Part shown: in pieces, positions 2,584 to 23,543 of the stretch | Layout of the letters: every line of letters begins with the position of its first letter | Numbering within the stretch: position 1 is the stretch's first letter | NCBI GenBank assembly: GCA_017620525.1 | Contig: JAGAUY010000080.1 | Span: 1-48,495 of the forward strand | Length of the DNA: 48,495 bases | Reading direction: 5' to 3' | Origin: Oscillospiraceae bacterium | GTDB lineage: Bacteria > Bacillota > Clostridia > Oscillospirales > Oscillospiraceae | Position numbers and translations under genes: made by a program | Notes under the pieces: generated by a model | What the model saw: only the letters and a program-made list of their open reading frames with translations | Databases searched by the model: none | Told to the model about the DNA's origin: nothing

Positions 2584-2587
2584 AACT

Positions 2588-3449: not shown

Positions 3450-3452
3450 ACT

Positions 3453-3911: not shown

Positions 3912-3914
3912 ACT

Positions 3915-4670: not shown

Positions 4671-4671
4671 C

Positions 4672-5346: not shown

Positions 5347-5352
5347 CGCACA

Positions 5353-5383
5353 AGAGCCGCCCAACCCGGGCGGCTCTGCTTGT
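5353..5383. terminator. Bidirectional terminator between nnrE and the MATE gene
   Basis: A perfect 10-bp stem, AGAGCCGCCC (5353-5362) and GGGCGGCTCT (5368-5377), lies between two converging genes. T-rich DNA follows on the plus side (GCTTGTTT). The minus-strand tail is weaker. Confidence 0.65.
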
Positions 5384-6727: not shown

Positions 6728-6746
6728 AATGATACCTCGTATGAAA

Positions 6747-6758
6747 ATTAACGTTAAT
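6747..6758. promoter_or_regulatory. 12-bp palindrome in the MATE promoter region
   Basis: ATTAACGTTAAT is a perfect palindrome located 20 bases upstream of the MATE start codon. Its position suits an operator for a TetR- or MarR-type repressor, but no such gene is nearby. The function is inferred only. Confidence 0.35.
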
Positions 6759-6795
6759 ATCTTACCATATGCAACATGGTTTTTCAACGGATTGG

Positions 6796-7672: not shown

Positions 7673-7864
7673 TTCCGTACCTATATCTGTCAGTAAACCT
7701 TTGAGCTCGTCAAAGGGCATGGAGTAGCGCTGTGAGAGGTAGCGGAGACTCGCGCCGAGTTCTCCATCGGGACCGCCGTATTGGGTGATGATGATCCGTG
7801 CCAGCTGAGGGTTGGGATGAGCGATTTTTACTGGATACTGAAGCTTCTTTTCATAACTGAACAT
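7661..7864 (-). pseudogene. cotJC: cotJC, truncated after codon 64
   Basis: The first 64 residues match CotJC, the manganese-catalase-like spore coat protein: YEKKLQYPVK, QYGGPDGELGASLRYLSQRY and LLTDIGTE. Intact CotJC is about 190-200 residues, and this copy ends three codons after GTE. All later metal-ligand helices are lost. The break coincides with the end of the recombinase remnant, so insertion or deletion of that element is the likely cause. The ATG at 7862-7864 has AAGGAGGGG upstream and follows the cotJA-B stop codon by 4 bases. The product is unlikely to fold as a catalase. Confidence 0.85.
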
Positions 7865-7868
7865 ATAC

Positions 7869-8315
7869 TTACCCCTCCTTATTGCCGCAGTATTCCCATG
7901 GCCACGGATCATCCAGCCAGTCATAGGAATCACTCTGGCCTGGTGTGCTGTGATTCAAAGGTCCGCATTTTCTGGTGTATTCCATCATACCTTTGTGATA
8001 CAGGTCCTGGTATTGGCGATACAGCTGCAGCGCTTCGCGGTCATCCCGATGGGTGTCCAGATAAAGCGCCAATTCCTGAATGGCAAAGTGCATTACCTGA
8101 AGTTCTGTTTTCGGTGTGACCGGCAATTCATTTTGATTGACCATGCCCATAAAGGGCAGATCCAGCCCGGGGAATAGCGTACCTCTTACGATGCCTTTTC
8201 TGGCTTCGTATTTTGGGGGATTTTCAAGCTGAAAGGGTACAAATGGATTTGCCAGTGGCGCAGAGGCGGGAAGTTTTCCCTCTGTACCATTTTGAGAACG
8301 CATTCTTTGTTCCAA
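7869..8315 (-). CDS. CotJA-CotJB fusion, spore coat protein
   Basis: 148-residue protein joining two coat components that are usually separate. The N-terminal half (about 20-62) resembles CotJA: PFVPFQLENP, then RGTLFPGLDLPFMG. The C-terminal half (about 70-145) resembles CotJB: VMHFAIQELALYLDTHRDD, then YDWLDDPWPWE. Family knowledge places CotJA, CotJB and CotJC together in the mother-cell coat. The start is TTG 8313-8315, preceded at a normal distance by AGGAGG. A later ATG four codons in is less well placed. The gene precedes truncated cotJC in the same direction. Expression by a mother-cell sigma factor is expected, but I saw no clear promoter. Confidence 0.75.
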   Translation of the reverse strand: MEQRMRSQNGTEGKLPASAPLANPFVPFQLENPPKYEARKGIVRGTLFPGLDLPFMGMVNQNELPVTPKTELQVMHFAIQELALYLDTHRDDREALQLYRQYQDLYHKGMMEYTRKCGPLNHSTPGQSDSYDWLDDPWPWEYCGNKEG

Positions 8316-8432
8316 TTTTTATACCTCCTGTCAATTTGGACTTGAACTGTCGTTCCGCGTCATACTATGCCTTATTCACTCCCGAAGTTCATTCCATCCG
8401 CATTAATGCATAAAAACTGTGAGGTGTTGTTG

Positions 8433-9143
8433 ATGAGACTCAAAATGATTATCGGACAGATCGTAACATATTTCCTGGTCCTGACATTATTTACTGTGAT
8501 TACATACGGAGGAAGCAAAGCCGTCAGCGTGATTGCTCAGATGGTTCCTCTGGAGCGGGAACATACCATTGTCATTGATGCCGGTCATGGAGGTGTGGAC
8601 GGAGGGGCCATATCCTGCAGCGGAATACCGGAAAGTATGTATAATCTGGAAATTGCGCTGAAACTGGATGATTTATTGCATCTTCTGGGGATCAACACCA
8701 CAATGATCCGCTCAACAGACTGCTCCGTATATACTGAGGGGGAAACTATCGCAGCCAAGAAGGTTTCTGACTTAAAAAACAGAGTAACAGTGGTCAACGG
8801 GACAGAAAATGCGCTTCTTATCAGCATTCATCAGAATACTTTTTCTGACAGCAGATACAGCGGTGCACAGGTATTTTATGGACCGGAAGGAAATGGTGCG
8901 GAACTGGCCAAAAAGCTTCAGGATGCATTCTGCGCCACAGTCAATCCGCAAAGCAATCGGGTTTGTAAGAAAGCTGAAAATGTATATCTGATGCAGCACA
9001 TCAATTGTCCCGGTATTCTGGTTGAGTGCGGTTTTATATCCAACGCGGAAGAAGAAGGTAAACTTCGAAGCGATGAATACCAACGCAAGCTTTGCTCTGT
9101 AATCGCGACTACGATTTCAGAGTTCTTGACCGGGAAGATATAG
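8433..9143 (+). CDS. cwlD: N-acetylmuramoyl-L-alanine amidase, CwlD type
   Basis: 236-residue Amidase_3 protein with an N-terminal membrane anchor (about residues 5-30). Zinc ligands and catalytic residues appear in order: His in DAGHGGVDGG, Glu in YNLEIALKL, His in SIHQNTF and Glu in LVECGFISNAEEE. In spore formers CwlD removes the peptide side chain so that PdaA can form muramic lactam in the spore cortex, which germination enzymes need. The short single-domain form without SH3 or LysM repeats fits CwlD better than vegetative autolysins. ATG 8433 is preceded by GAGGTG at the right distance. Confidence 0.85.
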   Translation: MRLKMIIGQIVTYFLVLTLFTVITYGGSKAVSVIAQMVPLEREHTIVIDAGHGGVDGGAISCSGIPESMYNLEIALKLDDLLHLLGINTTMIRSTDCSVYTEGETIAAKKVSDLKNRVTVVNGTENALLISIHQNTFSDSRYSGAQVFYGPEGNGAELAKKLQDAFCATVNPQSNRVCKKAENVYLMQHINCPGILVECGFISNAEEEGKLRSDEYQRKLCSVIATTISEFLTGKI

Positions 9144-12849: not shown

Positions 12850-12878
12850 TTTGCTGCCTCCAATTATTTGTTATTTAT

Positions 12879-12907
12879 ATGATAGCATATTTGCATCTCG
12901 AACGCAA
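12879..12907 (-). promoter_or_regulatory. Sigma-A-like promoter of the tyrosine recombinase
   Basis: Read on the minus strand, TTGCGT (12907-12902) and TATCAT (12884-12879) are separated by 17 bases, 30 bases upstream of the start codon. The -35 box lies inside the left arm of the inverted repeat, so a protein bound there would block transcription. Confidence 0.5.
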
Positions 12908-12932
12908 CAAAATTTTTATTTTGTTGCGTTCG
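12899..12932. repeat. 14-6-14 bp inverted repeat next to the tyrosine recombinase
   Basis: CGAACGCAACAAAA (12899-12912) and its exact complement TTTTGTTGCGTTCG (12919-12932) flank the 6-base centre TTTTTA. Two inward-facing arms around a 6-8 bp centre is the layout of tyrosine recombinase core sites such as dif. A second, partly matching copy is at 14046-14079. The alternative is an operator for the XRE protein. Confidence 0.6.
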
Positions 12933-12976
12933 TTCTTCTGCCCTTGACAGGGCTGCTTCTCCTGTGTTATTTATTA

Positions 12977-13027
12977 CTCGACAACTGAATATGGGGGCGG
13001 CTGCCGGATTAGTCGCCCGGTGGCCGC
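12977..13027. other. GC-rich hairpin upstream of a small ORF
   Basis: GGGGGCGGC and GCCGCCCCC form a stem around a central GC-rich loop, followed by TCTCCTTTTG. It could act as a terminator for rightward transcription leaving the recombinase region. The T-run is short. Confidence 0.4.
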
Positions 13028-13066
13028 CCCCTCTCCTTTTGTCGTGCCAAAGTGTGGTGAAAGATT

Positions 13067-13249
13067 GTGTTCAATGCTGGAAAAACTGATGTTCGTGTCC
13101 TGTTTGAACTTGGTGTTCTTCTGGACAATATGCCTACCGGCTGTATCGACCCTAAATCCGAACTTTATCGGACATTAAAGGACTTAACCAACGCAGTATA
13201 TGAGCAAATGCCGAACAAAATCGTCATTGATTTCACTTCCGACGATTAA
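13067..13249 (+). CDS. Small protein of unknown function
   Basis: A 60-codon frame with GTG start and a weak ribosome site (GGTGAAAG). The product reads LFELGVLLDNMPTG in the first half and LKDLTNAVYEQMPNKIVIDF in the second, with no signal peptide or membrane segment. I recognise no family. The amino acid composition is that of a soluble helical protein. It sits in repeat-rich DNA upstream of the tyrosine recombinase, together with a second small ORF at 13818, and so may be cargo or an accessory factor of that module. Confidence 0.4.
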   Translation: MFNAGKTDVRVLFELGVLLDNMPTGCIDPKSELYRTLKDLTNAVYEQMPNKIVIDFTSDD

Positions 13250-13331
13250 ATCGTTACAAAATGTTACCCATTCGGGACACCGATGGGAGACCTGTACTAT
13301 GCCAGTAGCACAAGCCAATAACAGAAAGAGG

Positions 13332-13690
13332 TTGTCGGGGGCTGGGCTTATCAGCCCCCACAATCCCCTGTAAGCTTCAAAAGCTTCTTCTGCGTGTCCC
13401 TACCCATAGCGAAGCTGGAAGCGCACGGTACAAACCCGCCTAGGACGCTACAACCTCCCCTGCGCGGTCTTTCCGAGCCTGGTTAGGGGCATACACCCCG
13501 AAAGCGAAGCTTTCCCTTGTATGCCAAACGGCGGCGAATAGCCGCCCTAGCGCCCCCGGCGCAAGCTTCCGTTCATCTGCCGCTTTTGAAAGTGATGTAT
13601 CCGTTTTCTCGTGTCATGCCTTTCCGGTGCTCGTACCTGTCTGCAAGCGGATGGGGCAACGGGGTCCCCTGTCCGCTTGCGGGCGGGGAC
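13332..13690. other. Non-coding, hairpin-dense GC-rich tract
   Basis: There is no convincing gene here. Several stems follow each other: TTGT-c-GGGGGCTG with CAGCCCCC-ACAA (13332-13363); GGCATAC with GTATGCC enclosing GAAAGC/GCTTTC (about 13486-13525); GGCGGC/GCCGCC just after; and GCAAGCGGA with TCCGCTTGC enclosing GGGG/CCCC (about 13643-13682). This could be a structured RNA or a single-strand origin or transfer origin of a mobile element. A 109-codon frame across it has unnatural composition and was rejected. Confidence 0.45.
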
Positions 13691-13706
13691 GCTCGCCGGA
13701 ACGGTT

Positions 13707-13750
13707 TGACACACGAAACGCATACTACGACTATTGCGTTTCGTGTGTCA
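13707..13750. repeat. Perfect 16-bp inverted repeat with 12-base loop
   Basis: TGACACACGAAACGCA (13707-13722) is exactly complementary to TGCGTTTCGTGTGTCA (13735-13750). It is the strongest hairpin of the tract and starts the TGTGTCA repeat array. Such structures occur at plasmid origins, transfer origins and protein-binding sites. No T-run follows, so it is not a standard terminator. Confidence 0.7.
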
Positions 13751-13796
13751 TGTGTCAACACATCTGACACATTCTTCAGTTTGTGTCATGTGTCAA
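13707..13796. repeat. TGTGTCA heptamer array
   Basis: Direct copies of TGTGTCA lie at 13744, 13751, 13782 and 13789, and inverted copies TGACACA at 13707 and 13765. Two copies form the 15-base direct repeat TGTGTCATGTGTCAA (13744-13758 and 13782-13796). A further single copy at 14047 overlaps the left arm of the second recombination-like site. The arrangement resembles iterons or multiple binding sites of one DNA-binding protein. Confidence 0.6.
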
Positions 13797-13817
13797 GATT
13801 TGGAGGTGAAATCCCTT

Positions 13818-14018
13818 TTGCCAAAGAAAGACTTTTGTTGCGTTGATAACTTTTCTGTCCTAATTCCCTACCGAGATCTTGAGCGACTACTGGAAACTGC
13901 GAACAAAATGCAGTTTTTTCAAGATCAGCTTACACGAACTAACGAGCAGTTGACAGCACTTCGGATCATGTATTCCGAAGCACTCGAAAAAATTGCGGAA
14001 ATCAACCGTTTTCTCTGA
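13818..14018 (+). CDS. Small coiled-coil protein of unknown function
   Basis: 66-residue frame starting at TTG 13818, with GGAGGT at 13802-13807. An earlier in-frame ATG at 13734 would begin inside the large inverted repeat and is less likely. The product has a short basic start (PKKDF), a hydrophobic stretch and a long amphipathic helix (about 22-64: YRDLERLLETANKMQFF, then EQLTALRIMYSEALEKI) suited to a coiled coil. I do not recognise the family. Because it follows the TGTGTCA array directly, it may be controlled by whatever binds there. Confidence 0.5.
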   Translation: MPKKDFCCVDNFSVLIPYRDLERLLETANKMQFFQDQLTRTNEQLTALRIMYSEALEKIAEINRFL

Positions 14019-14045
14019 CTCCTTTTTGTGATTTACGGTTTGATC

Positions 14046-14079
14046 ATGTGTCAACAAAACGATTATTTTGTTGCGTTCG
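14046..14079. repeat. Second, imperfect copy of the 14-6-14 inverted repeat
   Basis: The right arm TTTTGTTGCGTTCG (14066-14079) is identical to that at 12919-12932, and the shared direct repeat extends to 17 bases. The left arm ATGTGTCAACAAAA (14046-14059) keeps only the inner eight bases CAACAAAA. The central six bases are CGATTA, so only the last two match the first copy. Arm length and 6-base spacing are the same, which argues that both copies are sites for one protein. Confidence 0.55.
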
Positions 14080-14516
14080 TTTCTATGCTCGGTTTGATTC
14101 CAGGTAAATCTCTTCTCTGCTCCTCTTCTAACAGAAAGCTTTTTCCAAATTAAACCTGATTTACAATCCTGGACTGAATACTTAGTTTACTGATTTCAGC
14201 TGAACGGTTATTGTTTTGAAGGAGCTTCAGATTGCGATTGCAGTTGTGCAAGTATGCCATATTTCAGACGGGCATGTGTCTAATTACTACATGAGGTCTT
14301 AGATGATTATTTTTGTTGCATCAGATATACATGGATTGGGCTTTATTCCAGTAGAAGCATACCATAAATTGCATGGCGCATATCTTGATCTACCCCATTC
14401 ATTTGTATTTCTAAATGGTCAAATTAAAAATCAACAAAAAATTATTTATTTCTTCGTGAAATTTAATTTCTTTTTGTGCAAATAGATGAAAAGAGCGTAA
14501 TGCCGCAATGCTACCA

Positions 14517-14544
14517 TTGACATTTTTATAAAATGTAATAGAAT
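14517..14544 (+). promoter_or_regulatory. Sigma-A-like promoter of the sugar importer operon
   Basis: A consensus -35 TTGACA (14517-14522) and a -10 TAGAAT (14539-14544) are spaced 16 bases apart in very AT-rich DNA, about 130 bases upstream of the solute-binding protein gene. The long leader leaves room for regulation. Confidence 0.6.
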
Positions 14545-14673
14545 AAATTTATAGTTGAAACATACAAAGAGCAATGTTATGCAATATGTTCCTTGGAAAC
14601 CGCATAATACATAGCGCAAATACGGAGTCCTTTATATGTATCAGCTAATTATTATCAGGAGGAGAAACAACTA

Positions 14674-16014
14674 ATGAAAAACGCAATGAAGAAGTACCTG
14701 GCTCTGGCTCTGGCTCTGCTGATGGTCCTGTCTCTGGTTGCTTGCGGCGGCGAAACCGCCCCCGCTACCGAGGCTCCCGCTGCTGATCCTGCTCCCGCTC
14801 CCGAGGCTGATCCCGCTCCCGCTCCCGAGGCTGATCCCGCTCCCGCTGAAGGCGTCACCATCAAGTTCCAGCAGTGGTGGGGCGTTGAGCTGCCCGAAGG
14901 CTACCTGCAGGGCATCGCTGACGACTTCGAAGCTGAAACCGGCATCAAGGTCGAACTGATCAGCGCTCCCTGGTCCGACACCAAGACCGCTATCACCGCT
15001 GGCGCTGCCAACGGCACCATCGCTGACGTCATCTCCGTCGACGGCGCATGGCTGGCTGAGTTCTCTGAAATGGGCCTGCTGGCTGACCTGGAAGCTGCTG
15101 GTCTGAACACCGAGCTGGCTGGCGACGTCTGGTCCGTCAATGGTGTCAAGCACGTTGTTCCCGTTAACAACTTCACCTATCCCATGTACGTCAACATGGA
15201 CATCCTGAACGCTTCCGGCGTTGAGGCTATCCCCACTACCTGGACCGAGCTGGTCGACGCTTGTAAGAAGATCGCTGACGCTGGCTACTCCGCATTCGCA
15301 CTGAACCTGGGCGTTACCAATGCCAACGGCATCCAGAACGTCTTTATGCACACTGGCTGGGCTTCCGGCATCGGCCTGAAGAACGAGGCTGGCGAATATG
15401 ACGTCGCTGGCAACGAAGACATCAAGGCTCTGGCTGAGCTGTACAAGACCCTGTACGACAACGGCTGCCTGTACGCCGGTATGTCCACCCTGGAAGAGGC
15501 TGAAATGACCTCCAACTTTGCTGCTGGCAACTGTGCATTCACCGTTGCTTCCGCTGCTACCATGGGCGAGTTCTCCAACCTGGACTTCGAGGCTGCTCTG
15601 ATTCCCGTTAAGGACGGCTACGAAGGCCAGAGCGGTATCTGCTACGCTTCCTGGGCTGCTGGTATCTCCGAGGCTTCCGAGCACAAGGCAGAGGCTGCAC
15701 AGTGGCTGAACTACCTGCTGGGCGGCATCGACGGCACCGACGGTTCCGTCTCCGCTGGTCTGGCTTCCACTCAGACTGCATTCCCCAACTCCAAGATTGC
15801 TAACCCCGACTACAGCGCTACTCCCGCACAGTTCCAGTCCTTCTACGAACTGTACAAGGAGAACTACGTTATCAACGAGTTCATCGGCCTGCCCAACGCT
15901 TCCTCCGTCATGACCGACATGACCAACGATCTGGTCCTGTACCTGGAAGGCGACCTGGATGTTGATACTCTGCTGAACAACTGGCAGGGCTACCTGGACA
16001 ACGCAGGTGCATAA
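14674..16014 (+). CDS. Sugar ABC transporter substrate-binding lipoprotein
   Basis: 446-residue family 1 extracellular solute-binding protein for a carbohydrate importer (CUT1). The signal peptide ends in a lipobox LSLVAC with Cys24 as lipidation site. A Pro/Ala/Glu/Asp-rich linker follows (about 28-60, three DPAPAPEA-like repeats) that likely spaces the protein from the membrane. The mature domain starts VTIKFQQWWG and has family blocks such as YVNMDILNASGV and PTTWTELVDACKKI. GGAGGAG lies 8 bases before the ATG. Codon use is extremely biased to a few C-ending codons, which indicates very high expression. The ligand is unknown. No ATP-binding subunit is encoded here, so a shared MsmK-type ATPase would be needed. 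Confidence 0.9.
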   Translation: MKNAMKKYLALALALLMVLSLVACGGETAPATEAPAADPAPAPEADPAPAPEADPAPAEGVTIKFQQWWGVELPEGYLQGIADDFEAETGIKVELISAPWSDTKTAITAGAANGTIADVISVDGAWLAEFSEMGLLADLEAAGLNTELAGDVWSVNGVKHVVPVNNFTYPMYVNMDILNASGVEAIPTTWTELVDACKKIADAGYSAFALNLGVTNANGIQNVFMHTGWASGIGLKNEAGEYDVAGNEDIKALAELYKTLYDNGCLYAGMSTLEEAEMTSNFAAGNCAFTVASAATMGEFSNLDFEAALIPVKDGYEGQSGICYASWAAGISEASEHKAEAAQWLNYLLGGIDGTDGSVSAGLASTQTAFPNSKIANPDYSATPAQFQSFYELYKENYVINEFIGLPNASSVMTDMTNDLVLYLEGDLDVDTLLNNWQGYLDNAGA

Positions 16015-16035
16015 TTTCCGCCATAACTGAAACTT

Positions 16036-16066
16036 TGGAAAAGGGGTCTTTTGACCCCTTTTCTTT
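16036..16066 (+). terminator. Intra-operon attenuating hairpin after the binding-protein gene
   Basis: AAAAGGGGTC and GACCCCTTTT form a 10-bp stem with a very short loop, followed by CTTTAAAA. Such a leaky terminator after the first gene of an importer operon commonly sets the protein ratio. Confidence 0.6.
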
Positions 16067-16137
16067 AAAAGCGGGAAAATGTCCATTGATTTGAACCATA
16101 TGTTTCCCGTACAATCTTTATGGTAGGAGGGTTAAAA

Positions 16138-17025
16138 TTGAATCTGAAGCGAATCGTAAAGAAAAGCACGCCTTACAGATACCTGTTTCCCACCGTCCTG
16201 CTGATGGTGGTTTTCCTGGTGATTCCCATCTGCATGGTCGTCAGCTATTCTTTTGTTGACAAAGCCGTTGTTTCCAAGACCCCCGAGTTCGTGGGTTTTG
16301 CAAACTACATTGAACTGCTCAAGGATTCCAAGTTCTGGAATGCCGCAAGCAATACCATCGTATTCGTGCTGGTCAGCGTTGTGGCCCACATTGTTCTGGG
16401 CATGGTTTTCGCACAGCTGCTGAACTCCAAGTATTTTAAGACCGGTACTAAGACCATTGCCCGTGTCGTTTACATTCTTCCCTGGGTCTTCACCGCATCC
16501 GTCGTTGCAATCCTGTGGAAGCTGATGCTGCAGCCCTCCGGTATCATCAACTATCTGCTGTCTTTCATGCCGCAGATCAATAATAAGTTTGAGTGGCTCA
16601 GCAACCGTGATCTGTCTCTTGCTGTCGTATGCTTTATCAACATTTGGTGCGGATATCCCTTCTACATGGTCAGTATTCTGGCAGGTCTGCAGGGTGTCCC
16701 CGGCGATCTTTACGAGAGTGCTGCCATTGATGGCGCTACTACCGTCAAGAGCTTCTGGCACATCACCATTCCCCAGCTGATGCCCATCCTGATCAGCATC
16801 GCCATGCTGGACTTTATCTGGACACTGCAGTCTTTCAACGTCATCTGGATGCTGACCGGCGGCGGTCCCATCAATTCTTCCGAAATGCTGAGTGTCTACA
16901 TCTATAAGCTGACATTCCAAAAGCTCGATTACAGTATGGCAAGTACCACCGCAACGGTTCTGCTGATCGTTTGCGTGATCTTCGCCATTTTCTATGTAAG
17001 ACAGCAGAAGAAAGTGAGGGAGTAA
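16138..17025 (+). CDS. Sugar ABC transporter permease, MalF/UgpA type
   Basis: 295-residue inner-membrane subunit with six predicted membrane segments. The EAA loop that docks the ATPase reads YESAAIDGATTVKSFW, near residue 195. I chose TTG 16138 because AGGAGGG (16125-16131) lies at ideal distance. The ATG at 16120 starts upstream of that ribosome site and would not use it. A hairpin-like GGGGTCTTTTGACCCC segment lies between it and the binding-protein gene and may reduce read-through, which would give more binding protein than permease. The next permease gene follows after 3 bases. Confidence 0.9.
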   Translation: MNLKRIVKKSTPYRYLFPTVLLMVVFLVIPICMVVSYSFVDKAVVSKTPEFVGFANYIELLKDSKFWNAASNTIVFVLVSVVAHIVLGMVFAQLLNSKYFKTGTKTIARVVYILPWVFTASVVAILWKLMLQPSGIINYLLSFMPQINNKFEWLSNRDLSLAVVCFINIWCGYPFYMVSILAGLQGVPGDLYESAAIDGATTVKSFWHITIPQLMPILISIAMLDFIWTLQSFNVIWMLTGGGPINSSEMLSVYIYKLTFQKLDYSMASTTATVLLIVCVIFAIFYVRQQKKVRE

Positions 17026-17028
17026 GAC

Positions 17029-17865
17029 ATGGTTGGCAGTTACAAGAAATCCGTCAAAATCGTACTTTCCATTCTGTTGGTCTTGGGCGGCCTTTTTGCC
17101 GGCTTCCCCATCATCTGGATGCTTTGCTCGTCCTTTAAGTCCAACTCCACCATTTTCTCCTGGCCTCCCCAGTTCGTCGATGAGACCTTTGGTCTGCATT
17201 CCTATCTGGCAGTGCTCACCGATCCTTCCAAGGTTCGTTTCTTTATCAACAGTTACATCGTTGCCGCATGTGTCGTTCTCGCGACCCTGTTCATCGGTAT
17301 TCTGGCCGGTTATGCATTCAGCCGTTTTGATTTCCCCGGAAAGAGCCTGCTCAACTCTCTGATCGTCAGTGTTCAGGCTATTCCCCCCATCGTTCTGCTG
17401 ATCCCCTACATGAGCATGATCGTTGCCATGAAGCTGTTCGATACTTATCTTGCTCTGGTTCTAACCTATCTGGTCACTACCCTGCCCTACTGTATCCTGA
17501 TGATGACCGGTTACTTCAATACCCTGTCCAAGGAACTTGATGAGGCAGTTATGATCGATGGTGGTTCCCGTTGGAAGGCACTGTGGTCTGTTATCGTCCC
17601 CATTTCCATCCCCGGCATGGTCTCTGTCGGTATGTATACCTTCATGCAGGCCTGGAACGAGTATCTGTTCGCTCTGTGTCTGACGCAGAGAAACGAGATG
17701 AAGACCGTTCCAATCGGCATCAACCTGCTGATGGGCATGCACGGCAATGACTGGAGCCAGATGATGGCAATGAGTGTTCTGGGTTCCATTCCCGTGCTGA
17801 TCCTGTTTATCTTCTTCCAGAAGTACTTCATCGCCGGTATGTCCGCCGGTGGTGTTAAGGGCTAA
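17029..17865 (+). CDS. Sugar ABC transporter permease, MalG type
   Basis: 278-residue second permease of the CUT1 importer with six membrane segments. Its EAA loop reads LDEAVMIDGGSRWKALW, with the usual Gly spacing near residue 180. The N-terminal segment FAGFPIIWMLCSSFKSN is typical of MalG-type partners. It pairs with the preceding permease to form the channel. It is followed by a 39-base gap with GGAG before the aldolase gene, which places the catabolic genes on the same transcript. Confidence 0.92.
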   Translation: MVGSYKKSVKIVLSILLVLGGLFAGFPIIWMLCSSFKSNSTIFSWPPQFVDETFGLHSYLAVLTDPSKVRFFINSYIVAACVVLATLFIGILAGYAFSRFDFPGKSLLNSLIVSVQAIPPIVLLIPYMSMIVAMKLFDTYLALVLTYLVTTLPYCILMMTGYFNTLSKELDEAVMIDGGSRWKALWSVIVPISIPGMVSVGMYTFMQAWNEYLFALCLTQRNEMKTVPIGINLLMGMHGNDWSQMMAMSVLGSIPVLILFIFFQKYFIAGMSAGGVKG

Positions 17866-17904
17866 TCCACATTACATATTTCATTATAAAGGAGAAAACT
17901 TACT

Positions 17905-18765
17905 ATGCTGATGAATATGAAAGAGCTGCTGGCAGTTGCTAACAAGAACGGCTTTGCTGTTCCCGCATTCAATATCAGTGACTACAATATGTTCAATGGT
18001 ATCATGGAGATTTCTGAGGAAATGAATGCGCCTGTCATCATTGCCATTCATCCCGACGAACTGAGCCATACCAAGCCTGAGATGGTCAAGGGCATCATCG
18101 AGAGAATTCACAAGTCTCCCGTTCCTGCTGTTGTCCATCTGGACCATGGCAGCACCTTTGAGCAGATCATGCTGGCTATCCGCACCGGCTTTACCTCCGT
18201 TATGATCGATGCTTCTCACATGCCTCTGGACGAGAACATCGCCATCTGCAAGAAGGTCGTCGAAGCTGCTCACGCTGTGGGCGTCTCCGTTGAGGGTGAG
18301 CTGGGTACCATCGGCAATGTCGACTCCGCTGAGGGCGGCGCTGACTCCATCATCTACACCGACGTCGCCAACGCCGTTCAGATGATCAACGAAACCAACA
18401 TTGACTGCCTGGCAATCGCCATCGGCACCAGCCACGGCCTGTACCCCGCAAACATGAAGCCCAAGCTGAACATCGAGCGTCTGGACGAGCTGAAGGAAGC
18501 TCTGCCCGAGATCCCCATGGTCCTGCACGGCGGCTCCGGCAACGAGGACAGCGAGATCCGCAAGTCCGTCGAGCACGGTGTTGGCAAGATCAACATCTCC
18601 TCCGACATCAAGGTTGCTTACTACAACAAGATGCGTGAAGTTCTGCAGAACCCCAAGCTGCGTGAGCCCAACCAGATCCAGCCCCCCTGCCTGGAGGCAA
18701 TGAAGGTTGTTGCCCGCCAGAAGATCGAGCTGTTCAAGGCTGACGGCAAGGCTGCTCTGTATTAA
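17905..18765 (+). CDS. Class II ketose-bisphosphate aldolase (first copy)
   Basis: 286-residue zinc-dependent aldolase of the FbaA/KbaY/GatY family. It cleaves a ketose-1,6-bisphosphate to dihydroxyacetone phosphate and an aldehyde. Visible active-site elements are VVHLDHGST (zinc His and catalytic Asp), VEGELGTIGN, GTSHGLYP (zinc His), LHGGSGN (zinc His) and KINISSDI (phosphate binding). Whether the substrate is fructose-, tagatose- or another bisphosphate cannot be told. The position right behind the importer suggests use in catabolism of the imported sugar. Codon use is as extreme as in the binding protein, so expression is probably high. Confidence 0.9.
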   Translation: MLMNMKELLAVANKNGFAVPAFNISDYNMFNGIMEISEEMNAPVIIAIHPDELSHTKPEMVKGIIERIHKSPVPAVVHLDHGSTFEQIMLAIRTGFTSVMIDASHMPLDENIAICKKVVEAAHAVGVSVEGELGTIGNVDSAEGGADSIIYTDVANAVQMINETNIDCLAIAIGTSHGLYPANMKPKLNIERLDELKEALPEIPMVLHGGSGNEDSEIRKSVEHGVGKINISSDIKVAYYNKMREVLQNPKLREPNQIQPPCLEAMKVVARQKIELFKADGKAALY

Positions 18766-18780
18766 TATCTTAATTTCCGG

Positions 18781-18805
18781 TCCGGCGCGATTCTATCGCG
18801 CCGGA
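18781..18805. other. Intercistronic hairpin
   Basis: TCCGGCGCGAT and ATCGCGCCGGA form an 11-bp perfect stem with a 3-base loop between the first aldolase and the kinase. No T-run follows, so it more likely stabilises the upstream mRNA than ends transcription. Confidence 0.6.
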
Positions 18806-18833
18806 ATTCTGGGTACATGAAGGAGAAACATCC

Positions 18834-20042
18834 ATGGGTGAAAAAATTGCGTTAGGCTTTCATACCTGTGTGGATTATGAACTGGTATGGGATACAGCAG
18901 TCGTGGAAAAGCAGATCGCCGCTTTTGACATTCACGCGGACGAACTGAAAATATCCCCTGAAGCGGATTCCGAGCGTGCACTCTGGATCAGCGCCTTGGC
19001 ACATCTGCAGGCCGGCATCGGCGGTGAGATTATCCCCGAAGAGGCATCGGTCTGTGTGGATTTCGCCGATCATTTTGAATATGAGATCACCATGGGTGGC
19101 ACTGCTACCCGTGCTGCAATTGTTCTGGACAAGATGGGCTATGATTCCGTTCTGCAGACCAGCTGCTACAATAAGCATGTGGAGCGCCTGCTTCCCGGAC
19201 ATATTCGCGCTCTTCCCGGTGTTCCCGCAGATCACAATGAGATCTACCCCCATGTGATTCTGCAGTGCGCCGGCGGTGTCAGAATTCACGCGAATGATAT
19301 CGATTTTGTGACCCCCAGAGAGAACAGAATTCTGATCTCCAGAGATATCGACAGTCTGAATATGCCGGTACTCCCCAAGGAATTCGGTGAACTGATCACC
19401 GATGCGGAAGTATTTCTACTGGGCAGCTTCAGTCAGGTTCTGGACCGGGATATTCTGGAAGACCGTCTCGCAAAGACCAGAGATTTGTTCAGCTATCTGC
19501 CTGATGATGCACTGGTTGTCATGGAAGACGGCTGCTATGTTAAGAAGGACTTCCGTAACTATACCCATCAGGCTCTCGCATCCGTGACTGACATCGTTAG
19601 TATGAATGAGGATGAGATGCAGGAGTATATCGGCAAGCGGATCAATATTCTGGATCCTGATGCTGTTATCAACGCTCTGGACGAAGTTTACAGGGGAATC
19701 AACATCCCCATCCTGCTGGTGCATTCTGCTGCCTGGGCTCTTGCATACGGTGAGAATGCCGGTATGATGCGCCAGTCTCTCGAAGGCGGCGTGACTATGG
19801 CCGCTACCCGATTCCGTATTGGCGATGACATCACCCCTGAACTCTATGAGCAGACCAAGACCCTTGCCCCCAAGGCTGACAGTGTCGTTTTCTGCGAGAA
19901 GATGAAGAAAATCCTGGGTGAGAAAATCTGCATCATCCCCTGCAAGGATCTGAGCCATGTGTCCAATCCCACTGTTGTAGGCCTTGGCGACTCTTTTGCC
20001 GGTGGCCTGCTTCCCGGTCTGCTGAAGGAAAACCGCGGATAA
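18834..20042 (+). CDS. ADP-dependent phosphofructokinase/glucokinase family sugar kinase
   Basis: 402-residue protein that I assign to the PF04587 family (ribokinase-like fold, ADP as phosphate donor), best known from archaeal modified glycolysis. The sugar-binding segment ITMGGTATRAAIVLDKMGYD and the C-terminal catalytic loop VGLGDSFAGGLLPGLL, whose Asp acts as base, are visible. Its position between two class II aldolases suggests that it makes the bisphosphate they cleave, possibly by phosphorylating a ketose 6-phosphate. The sugar and the donor are inferred from family and context. A GGAG site precedes the ATG. The next gene starts 18 bases later. Confidence 0.75.
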   Translation: MGEKIALGFHTCVDYELVWDTAVVEKQIAAFDIHADELKISPEADSERALWISALAHLQAGIGGEIIPEEASVCVDFADHFEYEITMGGTATRAAIVLDKMGYDSVLQTSCYNKHVERLLPGHIRALPGVPADHNEIYPHVILQCAGGVRIHANDIDFVTPRENRILISRDIDSLNMPVLPKEFGELITDAEVFLLGSFSQVLDRDILEDRLAKTRDLFSYLPDDALVVMEDGCYVKKDFRNYTHQALASVTDIVSMNEDEMQEYIGKRINILDPDAVINALDEVYRGINIPILLVHSAAWALAYGENAGMMRQSLEGGVTMAATRFRIGDDITPELYEQTKTLAPKADSVVFCEKMKKILGEKICIIPCKDLSHVSNPTVVGLGDSFAGGLLPGLLKENRG

Positions 20043-20060
20043 TTAGTAAGGAGATTTTTT

Positions 20061-20918
20061 ATGTACGAAAAAGTTAGCAACATTCTGAAGATGGCAAAGG
20101 AAAGCAACACCGCTGTCATCGGTTTTGTCTGCATGGACTATGTCATGGCAAGAACGGTAGTATATGCTGCAGAAGCAACCAATACCCCCGCTCTGATCAT
20201 GCTGTATCCCGAACACGTAACCGTTCAGCATACCACCGGCTTTGCCAAGTATGCCGCTATGGTCAAGGAGCTTGCCAACGAGGTCAAGGTTCCCATCGGC
20301 CTGCACTGCGATCATGACTTCAGCTACAACGCAGTTCTAAATACCGTTCAGAACGGTTTTGAGTCTGTGATGATGGATGGTTCCATGCATGATCTGGATA
20401 CCAACATCGCCATGACCAAGGAAGTGGTCGACAAGCTGCACGAGATGGGTGTATGTGTTGAAGGCGAGATCGGCCATGTCGGCGCGGCTTCCAACGTCGA
20501 TAACGATAAGGAAGACCTGTATACCAAGCCTGATGCTGCAGCAAAGTTCTGCAAGGAGACCGGCGTTGACTCTCTGGCTGTTTCCATCGGCAACGCCCAC
20601 GGCGAATACAAGGATACTCCTCATCTGGACATGGAGCGTCTGGATCAGATCCACGCTGCTGTTCCCGATGTGCCTCTGGTTCTGCACGGTGGCAGCGGTA
20701 TCCCTGATGATCAGCTGCTGATTGCTTTCTCCAAGGGCATTAACAAGTTCAATCTGGGCACCGATTATCTGCGCAGATACTTTAATGCGATTTCCGAATT
20801 CGTTGCTGAAAATGCTGAGAATCCTGACCCTGTCAAGATCATCAATATGCCTGCATACGTTCAGGAAAAGCTGCAGCCCTACGTCGAAGAGCGTCTGAGA
20901 ACTCTGTGCCATTTCTGA
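20061..20918 (+). CDS. Class II ketose-bisphosphate aldolase (second copy)
   Basis: 285-residue aldolase of the same family as the gene at 17905 but clearly diverged (for example LHCDHDFSY in place of VHLDHGSTF). Zinc and phosphate sites remain: VEGEIGHVGAA, GNAHGEYK, LHGGSGIP and KFNLGTDYL. The differences around the first His-Asp block suggest a different substrate or stereochemistry from the first copy. AGGAG sits 9 bases before the ATG. It is the last gene before a strong terminator. Confidence 0.88.
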   Translation: MYEKVSNILKMAKESNTAVIGFVCMDYVMARTVVYAAEATNTPALIMLYPEHVTVQHTTGFAKYAAMVKELANEVKVPIGLHCDHDFSYNAVLNTVQNGFESVMMDGSMHDLDTNIAMTKEVVDKLHEMGVCVEGEIGHVGAASNVDNDKEDLYTKPDAAAKFCKETGVDSLAVSIGNAHGEYKDTPHLDMERLDQIHAAVPDVPLVLHGGSGIPDDQLLIAFSKGINKFNLGTDYLRRYFNAISEFVAENAENPDPVKIINMPAYVQEKLQPYVEERLRTLCHF

Positions 20919-20934
20919 TTGCAGTTTAATACTC

Positions 20935-20981
20935 AAGGGAAAGATATCTGTAACTTTCAGGTATCTTTCCCTTTCTGTTTT
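20935..20981 (+). terminator. Terminator of the sugar operon
   Basis: A perfect 12-bp stem, AAGGGAAAGATA (20935-20946) and TATCTTTCCCTT (20962-20973), with a 15-base loop is followed by TCTGTTTTCT. Confidence 0.8.
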
Positions 20982-21098
20982 CTCCATTATCCTCTTAAAA
21001 AATTCTGTGAAAATGTTTACATCATATCTGTACGAAAACAAAAAAGTATGATATGATAATTAAAATCATGTTAATTGAGCAGATCAGGAGGAGACTCT

Positions 21099-21944
21099 AT
21101 GGCGGAAAACAGTGCGGAAAGAACCGTTTTGGACACAATTACCTATATGTACGATAAAATATTTCAGGCAGAAAAGAAGGTTGCGGACTTTATTCTGGCC
21201 AATCCTGATGTTGCGGTGAATTCAAATGTCTCTGAACTTGCCAATCACAGCGGAGTCAGTGATGCAACAGTCATCAGATTATGCAAGCATCTCGGCTACG
21301 ATGGTTACTACCAGATGCGTCTGTGCCTTTCCAGAGATATTGGCCGCATTGCTTCCACCAGCGAAGTTCCAAATGCATCCGAGACATCCGTACAAAACCT
21401 GTTCAAGATCATTGCCGAAAGCTCCCTGGCCACGGCAGGAACGATCAATGAAACTGTCCTTAAGGAAGTCGTCGAGCTTATTCTGAACTGTGATATGGTG
21501 CATCTTGTCGCTGCCGGCAATACCACCAATCTGTGTATGGGATTCGGCCCCCGACTGGAACGTCTCGGAATTCGCTGCACCTATAATATGCTGCCGGAGC
21601 ATTATCTGGGTCACATCAATCTTGCTAGAAAAAACGAAGTTGTACTCTCGATCTCCGGCTCAGGCACCTCCCGTTATGTTGTAAAAGCACTCCATTTGGC
21701 AAAGGAAAAAGGATTAAAGACTGTCGCAGTTACCGGATACCAGTACTCCCCTGTCTCACGGATTGCTGATCATCTTTTGCTGTCCTCCTCTGGCAAAGCC
21801 GGAAAGCATCATCTTCCCCAATCTTCCCATTTAAGTGAGATGATTGTCCTGGAAGTGCTATATCTGATGCTTGAATACGCGATCTCCAAAATTGGCACAC
21901 AGATCTCCGAACCCGAGATGCTTCTGTCTGAGTCCAAGTTCTGA
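21099..21944 (+). CDS. RpiR/MurR family transcriptional regulator
   Basis: 281-residue regulator. Residues 1-80 form the RpiR helix-turn-helix domain (KKVADFILANPDVAV, then SGVSDATVIRLCKHLGYDGY). Residues about 125-260 form a SIS sugar-phosphate-binding domain (MVHLVAAGNT, VVLSISGSGTSRYVVKALHL). It probably senses a phosphosugar made by the neighbouring kinase and controls the operon or the next gene. GGAGGAG precedes ATG 21099. An 8-bp inverted repeat ATCATATC/GATATGAT upstream (21021-21057) could be an autoregulatory site. It has its own terminator, so it is a separate transcription unit from the sugar operon. Confidence 0.88.
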   Translation: MAENSAERTVLDTITYMYDKIFQAEKKVADFILANPDVAVNSNVSELANHSGVSDATVIRLCKHLGYDGYYQMRLCLSRDIGRIASTSEVPNASETSVQNLFKIIAESSLATAGTINETVLKEVVELILNCDMVHLVAAGNTTNLCMGFGPRLERLGIRCTYNMLPEHYLGHINLARKNEVVLSISGSGTSRYVVKALHLAKEKGLKTVAVTGYQYSPVSRIADHLLLSSSGKAGKHHLPQSSHLSEMIVLEVLYLMLEYAISKIGTQISEPEMLLSESKF

Positions 21945-21950
21945 TATATT

Positions 21951-21981
21951 AAAAGAAGACATCTGCGGATGTCTTCTTTTT
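21951..21981 (+). terminator. Terminator of the RpiR gene
   Basis: AAAAGAAGACATC and GATGTCTTCTTTT pair over 13 bp with loop TGCG, ending in a T-run. Confidence 0.85.
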
Positions 21982-22064
21982 CATCTGACCGGCATGGGCA
22001 ATTTGCGTTAAATAACCATTGAAGAGGCTGGAAATTATTACTGATTTTACCGTAAGCTTCCATC

Positions 22065-22110
22065 AAAATGAAATTTTTAGATTGCCAAATTTCATTTTCT
22101 ATGATATTGT
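22065..22110 (+). promoter_or_regulatory. Promoter with overlapping 12-bp inverted repeat operator
   Basis: AAAATGAAATTT (22065-22076) and AAATTTCATTTT (22087-22098) are perfect complements around a 10-base centre. A plausible promoter, TTGCCA (22082-22087) with TATTGT (22105-22110) and 17-base spacing, lies across the right arm. A protein on the palindrome would block polymerase. TGAAA...TTTCA half-sites are of the kind reported for RpiR-family operators, and the RpiR gene is directly upstream. Confidence 0.5.
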
Positions 22111-22140
22111 AGAGGAAAATATATAGGAGGATTATATTAT

Positions 22141-23370
22141 ATGAAGAAGTCCGGAAAAAAACTGTCGCTGACTGTTAAAATCTCGATCAGCCTGTTGCTT
22201 GGTATCCTGGCAGGTATCGCGCTGCAGAAGCATTCTGATTTTGCGGTCCAGTATATTAAGCCTCTTGGCACAATTTACCTGAATCTGATCAAGATGATCG
22301 TTGTCCCGGTCGTCCTGCTTTCTATTACGCAGGGCATTGTCTCGCTGCAGGATATCAGGAAAGTCGGTTCGATCGGTCTGCGCACCGTTGCATATTATGT
22401 TGTGACAACTGCCCTCGCTGTTACGATTGGTCTGCTTTTTGCCAATATTCTGAATGTCGGTGCCGGTTATGTGCTTCCTTCCGGAGAACTGAGCTATCAG
22501 GCTTCTGAAGCTCCCAGCTTCATTGATACGATCGTTAACATCTTCCCTTCCAATGCGTTTACTCCTCTGGTTGAGGCAACAATGCTCCAGGTGATCGTTC
22601 TGGCACTCTTTCTGGGTTTTGGTATCATTCTGGCCGGAGAAAAGGGGACCACTGCTGTCAAGGTGGTTGACAGCTTTGCTGAGGTTGCATTCCGTATCAT
22701 GGATATGATCATTCAGCTGTCTGCTATTGGTGTTTTTGCCCTGATCTGTCCTGTTGTTGCCCAGAACGGTCCTGCAGTTCTTCTACCGCTGCTGAAAGTT
22801 ATTCTTGTGGCTTATACCGGCTACTGTGTTCACATGCTGATTACCTATTCGCTCTCCGTCAAGTTCGTTGCCGAAATGAGTCCTGTAACTTTCTTTAAGG
22901 AAATGAGTCGTCCCATGCTGTTTGCCTTCTCCAGTGCCAGCAGCGTCGGTACCCTGCCCTTCAATCTGGAAACCACCGAAAAGCTCGGTGTACGCAAGGA
23001 GATTTCCAGCTTTGTCCTTCCTCTCGGCGCAACCATCAATATGGATGGCACCGCAATCTATCAGGGTGTCTGTGCCATCTTTATTGCTCAGATTTTTGGT
23101 ATCGACCTGACCTTGACTCAGCAGATCACGATTATTCTTACCGCAACTTTAGCCTCCATTGGTACCGCCGGTGTCCCCGGCTCAGGTATGATCATGTTGG
23201 CAATGGTTCTGCAGAGCGTTGGTCTGCCTCTGGAGGGTATCGCCCTGGTCGCCGGTATTGACCGGATTCTGGACATGGGCCGTACTGTTGTTAATATTAC
23301 AGGTGATGCTTCCTGCGCGATCTGTGTGGATGCCTGGGAGAAGAAGAGAGAAAACAAGCAGTCTAAATAA
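22141..23370 (+). CDS. Dicarboxylate/amino acid:cation symporter (DAACS family)
   Basis: 409-residue secondary transporter of the GltP/DctA/SstT family, importing glutamate/aspartate, C4-dicarboxylates or serine/threonine with Na+ or H+. Conserved substrate and ion sites are seen in hairpin HP1 (SSASSVGTLPFNLE), in TM7 (GATINMDGTAIYQGV, the NMDGT motif) and in HP2 (IGTAGVPGSGM). The TM8 segment ends INITGDASCAICVD-like. Its specificity cannot be read. GGAGG is 9 bases before the ATG. Its promoter carries a palindromic operator, so its expression is probably conditional. Confidence 0.9.
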   Translation: MKKSGKKLSLTVKISISLLLGILAGIALQKHSDFAVQYIKPLGTIYLNLIKMIVVPVVLLSITQGIVSLQDIRKVGSIGLRTVAYYVVTTALAVTIGLLFANILNVGAGYVLPSGELSYQASEAPSFIDTIVNIFPSNAFTPLVEATMLQVIVLALFLGFGIILAGEKGTTAVKVVDSFAEVAFRIMDMIIQLSAIGVFALICPVVAQNGPAVLLPLLKVILVAYTGYCVHMLITYSLSVKFVAEMSPVTFFKEMSRPMLFAFSSASSVGTLPFNLETTEKLGVRKEISSFVLPLGATINMDGTAIYQGVCAIFIAQIFGIDLTLTQQITIILTATLASIGTAGVPGSGMIMLAMVLQSVGLPLEGIALVAGIDRILDMGRTVVNITGDASCAICVDAWEKKRENKQSK

Positions 23371-23383
23371 GTATGTATTTCAC

Positions 23384-23420
23384 AACCACCTGATCCGGTA
23401 CCGATCGATCAGGTGGTTTT
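23384..23420 (+). terminator. Terminator after the symporter gene
   Basis: AACCACCTGATC (23384-23395) pairs with GATCAGGTGGTT (23407-23418), followed by TT. Confidence 0.75.
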
Positions 23421-23469
23421 CATACTGCTTTCCTTTTTAGAGGTTTTGTGTTTTTTTGTAAAAAACGAC

Positions 23470-23498
23470 TTTACAATCTGCTCAATAGAAGGTAAAAT
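23470..23498 (+). promoter_or_regulatory. Sigma-A-like promoter of pfkA
   Basis: TTTACA (23470-23475) and TAAAAT (23493-23498) have 17-base spacing and lie about 45 bases upstream of the pfkA start. A small inverted repeat TTGTAAA/TTTACAA overlaps the -35 region. Confidence 0.6.
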
Positions 23499-23543
23499 AC
23501 AATCAGATAGAATATTGGGAATTTCCAACAGGAGGAATTCATT

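What the first reader, a model, noticed from the sequence alone, without database searches (positions are those of the whole stretch)
14674..20918. Sugar operon with an ADP-dependent kinase between two different class II aldolases
A CUT1 importer, a class II aldolase, a kinase assigned by motif to the ADP-dependent PFK/glucokinase family, and a second diverged aldolase follow each other on one strand. That kinase family is best known from archaea. A normal ATP-dependent pfkA lies at 23544, so the ADP enzyme probably serves another sugar. There is no isomerase, glycosidase or epimerase, so the imported compound may be a ketose or sugar phosphate entering near the bisphosphate level. The two aldolases differ around the first His-Asp block, which suggests two substrates or stereoisomers. 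The pathway as a whole is not one I can name.
Basis: partly seen in the sequence, partly recalled or inferred. Interest (0 to 1): 0.75.

Follow-up and report, generated by a model that had tools for sequence, protein, structure and literature searches.

The report
ADP-type kinase in ketose-cleaving operon
A sugar-uptake operon in this bacterium pairs a kinase of a family best known from archaea, which probably spends ADP instead of ATP, with two sugar-splitting enzymes; similar sets recur in related bacteria and look like an unstudied route for an unidentified sugar.

Summary
Six genes at 14674-20918 lie at the stated places. The kinase passes the PF04587 cut-off (47.3 vs 27 bits) without a PfkB match. 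The set recurs, mostly in Lachnospiraceae: 42 of 44 examined loci with a kinase of groups A, B or C carry a class II aldolase; 0 of 6 loci of a stand-alone relative do. Three corrections. (1) pfkA is backbone: 6 of 6 same-genus genomes inspected have xerC-pfkA without the operon, so the operon is an insertion. (2) An isomerase belongs to the theme: a D-lyxose-isomerase (PF07385) relative sits beside half of the group A loci. (3) Entry "near the bisphosphate level" is unlikely: the kinase has glucokinase-type residues at the specificity positions and both aldolases lack the residues recalled as C6-phosphate ligands. Best reading: free ketose > ketose-1-phosphate (ADP-type kinase) > dihydroxyacetone phosphate + free aldehyde. 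The sugar is unknown. Recurrent xylulokinase-type genes, the second aldolase and a replaced Asn in the sugar site are unexplained. New variant of a known kind; no activity was measured.

The parts
14517..14544 (+). promoter-like site, TTGACA-16-TAGAAT, about 130 bp before the first gene
   Evidence: 11 of 12 consensus positions; a consensus match only
14674..16014 (+). sugar-binding lipoprotein of a CUT1-type ABC importer
   Evidence: PF01547 106.8 bits
16120..17025 (+). CUT1 permease, MalF-like
   Evidence: PF00528 59.4 bits
17029..17865 (+). CUT1 permease, MalG/GlcU-like
   Evidence: PF00528 65.2 bits
17905..18765 (+). class II aldolase 1 (close to PRK08185, which has no assigned function): lacks the Arg331 and Ser61 equivalents of FbaA
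   Evidence: (PF01116 304.9 bits; NF006042 394 vs cut-off 405)
18834..20042 (+). ADP-type sugar kinase (PF04587, group A), glucokinase-type residues at the specificity positions
   Evidence: (47.3 bits, cut-off 27)
20061..20918 (+). class II aldolase 2, a separate clade (100/100) found only with group A kinases among the loci examined: Val at the Arg331 position, Tyr at Ser61
20935..20973 (+). terminator-like hairpin with T-rich tail after aldolase 2
21099..21944 (+). RpiR/MurR-family regulator (HTH_6 + SIS); start taken at the ATG after AGGAGGAG rather than the TTG at 21075
   Evidence: RpiR relatives at 20 of 28 group A loci
12850..23543 (.). inserted segment between backbone genes xerC and pfkA, holding the operon, the regulator and an SDF-family transporter
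   Evidence: operon absent from the xerC-pfkA interval in 6 of 6 same-genus genomes inspected

Best explanation
A laterally acquired catabolic operon of the isomerase-kinase-aldolase kind. A CUT1 importer takes up a sugar. Where it is an aldose, an isomerase (PF07385 type, beside the operon in half of the group A loci, elsewhere in this genome) gives the free ketose. The PF04587 kinase transfers the beta-phosphate of ADP to C1 of the unphosphorylated ketose. One or both class II aldolases then cleave the ketose-1-phosphate to dihydroxyacetone phosphate and an unphosphorylated aldehyde. In some relatives the aldehyde is probably captured by a dihydroxyacetone-kinase-type enzyme with TIM and RpiB-type isomerases. 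An RpiR regulator probably senses a sugar phosphate. Shown here: gene content, family membership, residue patterns, recurrence of the set, insertion in this species. Inferred: ADP as donor, C1 as the site, order of steps, regulation. Not determined: the sugar (a pentulose such as xylulose and a hexulose such as fructose or tagatose are both open).
For: Linkage: an aldolase at 27 of 28 group A, 13 of 14 group B and 2 of 2 group C loci, against 0 of 6 of the stand-alone group. Loci are not independent (near relatives; L018 and L024 are one genome), and 14 of 24 group B matches were examined, mostly the best-scoring. Kinase: E65 and H140 sit at the E90 and N181 positions of the ancestral enzyme, where Glu marks glucokinases and bifunctional enzymes and His a specific glucokinase (passages of PMC7948494; mapping by the alignment to 1ua4). 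H140 in 40 of 40 rows of groups A-C, E65 in 24 of 24 A, PFK-type Lys in 0 of 40. Aldolases: FbaA R331 absent in 35 of 35 Ald1 and 22 of 22 Ald2 rows, present in GatY, KbaY and 2 of 2 Ald3-type enzymes; YdjI, annotated as an octuluronate-1-phosphate aldolase, lacks it too. Isomerase and epimerase. DhaKL in 4 of 7 CUT2-type group B loci and in Cellulomonas L023, with RpiB and TIM genes in L084, L085/L117 and L023.
Against: A second sugar kinase recurs: FGGY kinases in L012, L016 and 6 of 7 CUT2-type group B loci; the two tested pass the xylulokinase model (L084 470.6, L012 547.3, cut-off 380.25); a PfkB kinase follows in L013. That would fit two successive phosphorylations. [quoted passage not shown] the His of HXE is not kept in A and B. 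ADP use is thus not proven by motif. Four of 14 group B kinases lack the Glu. At FbaA Glu182 Ald2 has mostly A, else S, K or C (alignment uncertain). No DhaK in the window's genome (68% complete) nor in 7 others of 26 searched, so the aldehyde's fate here is unknown. 14 of 28 group A loci show no isomerase nearby. The roles of R331 and S61 are recalled. No structure model could be made.
Confidence: 0.53

Rival explanations
1. Bisphosphate route: another kinase (xylulokinase-type FGGY or PfkB) makes the terminal phosphate, the PF04587 enzyme adds the C1 phosphate as ADP-phosphofructokinases do, and the aldolases cleave a ketose bisphosphate.
For: FGGY kinase in the locus at 6 of 7 CUT2-type group B loci and at L012 and L016; PfkB kinase at L013. 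ADP-PFKs of the same family do this chemistry. The family-wide Asn32 is missing, so substrate reading from residues is uncertain.
Against: PFK-type Lys and Asn absent in 40 of 40 rows of groups A-C; Arg at the R212 position in 1 of 40 (L089). FbaA Arg331 absent in 57 of 57 Ald1 and Ald2 rows; Ser/Thr61 absent in 56 of 57 (L017_6 has Thr in a disturbed N-terminus). 25 of 28 group A loci show no second sugar kinase of the types searched for (FGGY, fructokinase-like, PfkA) other than the window's backbone pfkA.
Confidence: 0.2
2. Dual route for one pentose: D-lyxose to D-xylulose by the PF07385 enzyme, then either xylulokinase to xylulose-5-phosphate or the ADP-type kinase to xylulose-1-phosphate, cleaved to DHAP and glycolaldehyde. 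A special case of the best explanation with the sugar named.
For: PF07385-type isomerase and FGGY kinase in the same locus at L012, L016, L084, L085, L087 (xylulokinase model passed by L012 and L084); characterised D-lyxose isomerases use D-lyxose, many also D-mannose (PMC8378251, passages).
Against: The D-lyxose/D-mannose isomerase equivalog is not reached by the two tested (250.7 and 200.7 vs 350). DhaKL, TIM and RpiB have no obvious job on glycolaldehyde. 14 of 28 group A loci show no isomerase nearby (some contigs are short).
Confidence: 0.15
3. The kinase is an ordinary ADP-glucokinase and the aldolases process an unrelated compound brought in by the same importer.
For: Glucokinase-type Glu and His; NCBIfam best hit is ADP-dependent glucokinase (far below cut-off).
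Against: Linkage of kinase and aldolase at 42 of 44 loci across three kinase groups and two importer types is hard to square with unrelated roles; both Asn of the sugar block are replaced in most group A rows.
Confidence: 0.07

Closest known systems
Archaeal ADP-dependent glucokinase / phosphofructokinase family (PF04587)
   Same: Passes the family cut-off; keeps the sugar-site Asp, the GG turn, the Arg equivalent to R206, the two Mg-site Glu, NXXE and GXGD.
   Different: 402 aa against 453-511 aa for the matching solved chains; His of HXE and the Asn pair of the sugar block not kept; sits in a bacterial catabolic operon with aldolases.
Sulfo-EMP2 sulfoquinovose pathway (SqvD, SqiK, SqiA)
   Same: Free ketose phosphorylated at C1, then a PF01116 class II aldolase gives DHAP and an unphosphorylated aldehyde (PMC9594981, passages).
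   Different: There the kinase is PF00365 and the isomerase PF02952; here PF04587 and PF07385. No sulfoquinovosidase family among the nine window proteins scanned.
E. coli ydj route (YdjH kinase, YdjI aldolase)
   Same: Kinase plus PF01116-type aldolase annotated for a ketose-1-phosphate; the aldolase also lacks FbaA Arg331.
   Different: YdjH recalled as a PfkB kinase (not tested); putative transporters and dehydrogenases of other kinds; YdjI branches apart from Ald1 and Ald2 on a long branch.
L-fucose / L-rhamnose pathways and mammalian fructolysis (recalled)
   Same: Isomerase, C1 kinase, aldolase, mutarotase; in fructolysis a DhaKL-family triokinase takes the aldehyde.
   Different: Other enzyme families and ATP as donor.
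Erythritol/threitol kinase-isomerase sets (LerK, LerI, DerI; recalled)
   Same: DhaKL + TIM + RpiB trio next to group B set L117 and in Cellulomonas L023.
   Different: The RpiB proteins are below the DerI cut-off (129.8 and 154.9 vs 240); the L023 one passes the actinobacterial ribose-5-phosphate isomerase model (183.7 vs 168.2). Joined here to a PF04587 kinase and an aldolase.

Membership tests
ADP-dependent sugar kinase family PF04587 | profile score over Pfam's cut-off | tested here: met
   47.3 bits, cut-off 27; five relatives of groups B, C and stand-alone 109.9-224.8 bits
ADP-dependent sugar kinase family PF04587 | catalytic GXGD and NXXE motifs, Arg equivalent to R206 | tested here: met
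   G383-L-G-D386, N258-E-D-E261, R165
ADP-dependent sugar kinase family PF04587 | HXE motif | tested here: not met
   Glu231 kept, His replaced by V/M/I/L/F in group A and Y/F in B; kept in group C and the stand-alone group
[quoted passage not shown]
   His10 in the window protein; Asn only in L101 and L103
ADP-dependent sugar kinase family PF04587 | ADP as phosphoryl donor | not testable with these tools
   needs an assay
ADP-phosphofructokinase | Lys179, Asn181, Arg212 (ancestral-enzyme numbering) | tested here: not met
   Tyr138, His140, Asp171 in the window protein; all three appear together only in L101 and L103
ADP-glucokinase | Glu at position 90 and His at position 181 | tested here: met
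   E65 and H140
ADP-glucokinase | equivalog score (PRK14039) | tested here: not met
   46.4 bits, cut-off 387
   no match at E 0.001
class II aldolase family PF01116 | profile score; Zn ligands and catalytic Asp | tested here: met
FBP/TBP-specific class II aldolases (FbaA, GatY, KbaY) | Arg331 and Ser/Thr61, recalled as C6-phosphate ligands | tested here: not met
   N331/H61 in Ald1, V331/Y61 in Ald2
isomerase - C1 kinase - aldolase (ketose-1-phosphate) pathway | isomerase in the same gene set | tested here: inconclusive
   PF07385 type at 14 of 28 group A and 6 of 14 group B loci; in the window's genome only on another contig, beside a fructokinase-like PfkB gene
isomerase - C1 kinase - aldolase (ketose-1-phosphate) pathway | kinase makes a 1-phosphate of a free ketose | not testable with these tools
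   needs an assay

The most novel reading that the evidence does not exclude
A bacterial catabolic pathway in which a member of the archaeal-type ADP-dependent kinase family has been recruited to make ketose-1-phosphates (not glucose-6-phosphate or FBP) for dedicated class II aldolases, with the free aldehyde fed through a dihydroxyacetone-kinase/TIM/RpiB module in some lineages. It would be an ADP-driven 'fructolysis-like' route and would give functions to the unnamed PRK08185-type aldolases and to three groups of bacterial PF04587 kinases.
Probability: 0.43. Interest if true: 0.72.

Novelty: new variant of a known kind. Interest (0 to 1): 0.55.

Why it matters
Bacterial ADP-dependent kinases are noted in print (abstract of PMC7948494, seen: 'also been reported in bacteria'), but no role in an operon like this was found in the paper searches named in the report. 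A recurrent operon with a kinase that may spend ADP gives a concrete substrate question that can be settled with a few purified proteins, and would extend ADP-dependent sugar kinases from central glycolysis to peripheral catabolism. It also gives a testable role for two unnamed class II aldolase clades.

Tried and rejected
Rejected: pfkA as part of the system (backbone gene; no pfkA relative near the other copies). MAG contamination as the source of the operon (flanking genes in the same order in same-genus genomes). A kinase-isomerase fusion in Cellulomonas L023: the frame is open across the junction, but a GAGGAG and GTG start suggest two genes and an N run follows; not counted. Sulfoquinovose: no marker family in the window proteins scanned. 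Plasmid-borne relatives: no match with two queries, a group A kinase (L023) and a group B kinase (L084). The wider Actinomycetota: 1 of 396 genomes, the centre of the search itself.

The genomic setting of the E. coli O157 lyxose isomerase was not reached. The substrate could not be read from the binding protein. DhaK survey: 18 of 26 genomes have one, too common to be telling by itself.

Limits: groups A, B, C and stand-alone are my names. Counts are of loci, many from near relatives. Genes at the loci were mostly named by tblastn similarity to a few tested proteins (matches over 60 bits). Group B: 14 of 24 matches were given neighbourhoods (not: G1113, G1119:C99, G1193, G1202, G1266, G1329, G1401, G1411, G1476, G1479). 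Stand-alone group: 6 neighbourhoods; the weak Bacillota matches G391 and G455 were not fetched further and not classed. Left out as duplicate fetches: L081, L082, L105, L106; from the kinase alignment also L008, L013, L015, L024 (partial or duplicate contigs). The aldolase alignment has 61 rows; one search adds Ald1 rows of L013, L022, L023, L119 and the Ald2 row of L016; Ald1 of L086 was taken in a wrong frame there and dropped, and L015 and L024 aldolases were never aligned. The aldolase tree leaves out L017_6 and warns of long branches.
Full report
Check of the observation. The kinase passes Pfam's PF04587 cut-off (47.3 vs 27 bits, E 1.6e-12) with no PfkB match. With the profile of 18 relatives, the solved structures matched at E 0.002 or better are 14 distinct sequences, all ADP-dependent kinases or, by their names, ancestral versions (best 5k27 8.7e-16, 1ua4 3.4e-13, 5od2 4.6e-10); the window protein alone gives 8.1e-5 at best. 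The two aldolases are PF01116. Aldolase 1 nearly reaches NCBIfam PRK08185 (394 vs 405 bits), a subfamily named only 'hypothetical protein'. A promoter-like site lies about 130 bp upstream and a terminator-like hairpin just after aldolase 2, so the six genes may be one transcript, with an RpiR-family gene next.

Is it in the right genome? Yes, and it is an insertion. In six same-genus genomes xerC, pfkA and xerD stand in the same order as in the window (xerC 79-88%, pfkA 81-88% identical) and none has the operon between xerC and pfkA; five have 0.4-2.9 kb there, one has 12.3 kb of other content. The window has 10.7 kb. Of 300 genomes of the family only the window's own has a PF04587 gene. The kinase's nearest relatives are 71% (Faecalicatena contorta) and 70% (Lactonifactor longoviformis) identical, and it falls in a starred clade of 14 rows (98/97) of Lachnospiraceae and otherwise Bacillota. 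The importer and aldolase 1 genes have GC3 0.67-0.74 against 0.45-0.62 in the flanking genes. I read this as lateral acquisition. pfkA is backbone, not a partner.

Relatives. A scan of genome contigs gave 23 loci. Surveys of whole genomes gave matches in 12 of 398 Bacillota, most of them weak, in 1 of 396 Actinomycetota, the centre itself, and in 30 of 397 genomes of the family of Sporofaciens musculi. The kinases form groups (tree): A (the window's, about 400 aa), B (about 445 aa), C (513 aa or more) and a stand-alone group of 484-508 aa. Five members tested, of B, C and the stand-alone group, pass PF04587.

Neighbourhoods (extended loci). Group A, 28 loci: aldolase 1 type in 25, aldolase 2 type in 23, at least one in 27 (not L077); isomerase in 14; epimerase relative in 10. 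Contigs of several loci are short, so absences are lower bounds. Group B, 14 loci: aldolase 1 type in 13 (one found only in the extended stretch L119; none for L091), isomerase in 6; seven have a ribose-type CUT2 importer, six of these an FGGY kinase. Group C: 2 of 2 with a PF01116-type gene and CUT1 importer. Stand-alone group: 0 of 6 with an aldolase. Linkage of this kinase type to a class II aldolase thus spans three kinase groups, two importer types and two phyla (Cellulomonas and Phytoactinopolyspora have CUT1, aldolase 1 and kinase in the window's order, without aldolase 2).

What the kinase binds. [quoted passage not shown] Through the alignment with 1ua4 these map to Y138, H140, D171, E65, H10, D14 and R165 of the window protein. 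H140 is present in 40 of 40 rows of groups A, B, C; Asn there only in L101 and L103 of the stand-alone group, which also have the Lys, the Arg and Asn32 and look like true PFKs (L103: TIGR02045 300.5 bits, cut-off 408.1). E65 is kept in 24 of 24 A, 10 of 14 B and 2 of 2 C rows. So groups A-C look made for an unphosphorylated sugar. Against a simple glucokinase: Asn32 is His and Asn34 is Cys in 20 of the 23 group A rows that cover them.

What the aldolases cleave. Against E. coli K-12 FbaA, GatY, KbaY and YdjI the Zn ligands and catalytic residues are kept (L017_6 has a disturbed N-terminus), so DHAP chemistry is expected. FbaA R331, recalled as the main C6-phosphate ligand, is Arg in FbaA, GatY, KbaY and two Ald3-type enzymes but absent in 35 of 35 Ald1, 22 of 22 Ald2, 2 of 2 group C rows, one further aldolase (L095_10) and YdjI. 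Position 61 is Ser or Thr in the former, His in 34 of 35 Ald1, Tyr or Phe in 22 of 22 Ald2, Gly in YdjI. YdjI is annotated as an octuluronate-1-phosphate aldolase. Ald2 (100/100) and Ald1 (99/97) are separate clades.

Pathway. Free ketose, kinase on C1, aldolase to DHAP plus free aldehyde is the simplest reading; it is how sulfo-EMP2 works with other enzyme families (PMC9594981, passages). In four of seven CUT2-type group B loci and in Cellulomonas a DhaKL gene lies in the set (two tested pass PRK14479, 584.8 and 685.3 vs 492), with RpiB and TIM genes at L117, L084 and L023, as if the aldehyde or its isomer were phosphorylated and isomerised. What speaks against a one-kinase route is the recurrent FGGY kinase (also beside group A in L012 and L016; two tested pass the xylulokinase model) and a PfkB kinase in L013. 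They could serve a parallel branch from the same ketose or a first phosphorylation; the aldolase residues favour the former.

The sugar is open. Characterised D-lyxose isomerases act on D-lyxose and many on D-mannose (PMC8378251, passages); with xylulokinase this points to xylulose, while DhaKL points to a glyceraldehyde or tetrose. The window's own isomerase is on contig C16 beside a fructokinase-like gene and may belong to another route.

Literature. Ten searches of open-licence PMC papers listed no description of this gene set; I saw the listings, passages of seven papers and the outline of one more. The passages of two reviews (PMC12965863; PMC12203962) place ribokinase-type ADP-PFKs in archaea, and the first mentions bacterial ADP-PFKs only of the PFK-A type. 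PMC9700705 (abstract, outline and passages) describes a ribulose-1-phosphate aldolase route in haloarchaea with an ATP-dependent kinase. PMC10101011 (abstract and outline) concerns an evolved D-tagatose route in E. coli. Subscription papers were not searched.

Noticed in passing
window 12850-23543 and L144: The xerC-pfkA interval seems to be an insertion hotspot in this genus: 0.4-2.9 kb in five genomes, 10.7 kb here, 12.3 kb of different content in G1501.
   Followed up: partly
window 12899-12926 and 14052-14079: A palindromic stretch (CGAACGCAACAAAAT / ATTTTGTTGCGTTCG) occurs twice in inverted orientation around a 1.1 kb region without a convincing gene, upstream of the operon.
   Followed up: no
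window 22141-23370: SDF-family symporter inside the inserted segment; a relative at 61-62% identity in only 2 of 20 other same-genus genomes, and no SDF match among the predicted genes of L002-L024.
   Followed up: partly
L098-L103: Stand-alone bacterial PF04587-type kinases in Bacillota; L101 and L103 carry the full PFK-type residue set, the other four a mixed one.
   Followed up: partly
L119:7382-8575 (-), L088:4384-5580 (-), L093:3022-4263: A protein of about 400 aa, perhaps a cupin (25-26% identical to a ManA-like protein in two cases), recurs beside group B loci; the L119 copy has no Pfam or NCBIfam match.
   Followed up: partly
L017:8991-11020 and L024: Degraded or rearranged copies of the operon: binding-protein and aldolase 1 pieces close together without permeases (L017); broken frames and an inverted second copy (L024, Suipraeoptans).
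   Followed up: no
L026 (G000:C16) 1676-9064: The window genome's PF07385 isomerase sits next to a PfkB fructokinase-like gene and, by eye, near a manA-like gene, possibly a separate mannose/fructose route.
   Followed up: partly
L095:10083-10943 (-): A further, divergent class II aldolase (36% to Ald1) next to a group B kinase and an Ald1 gene.
   Followed up: no
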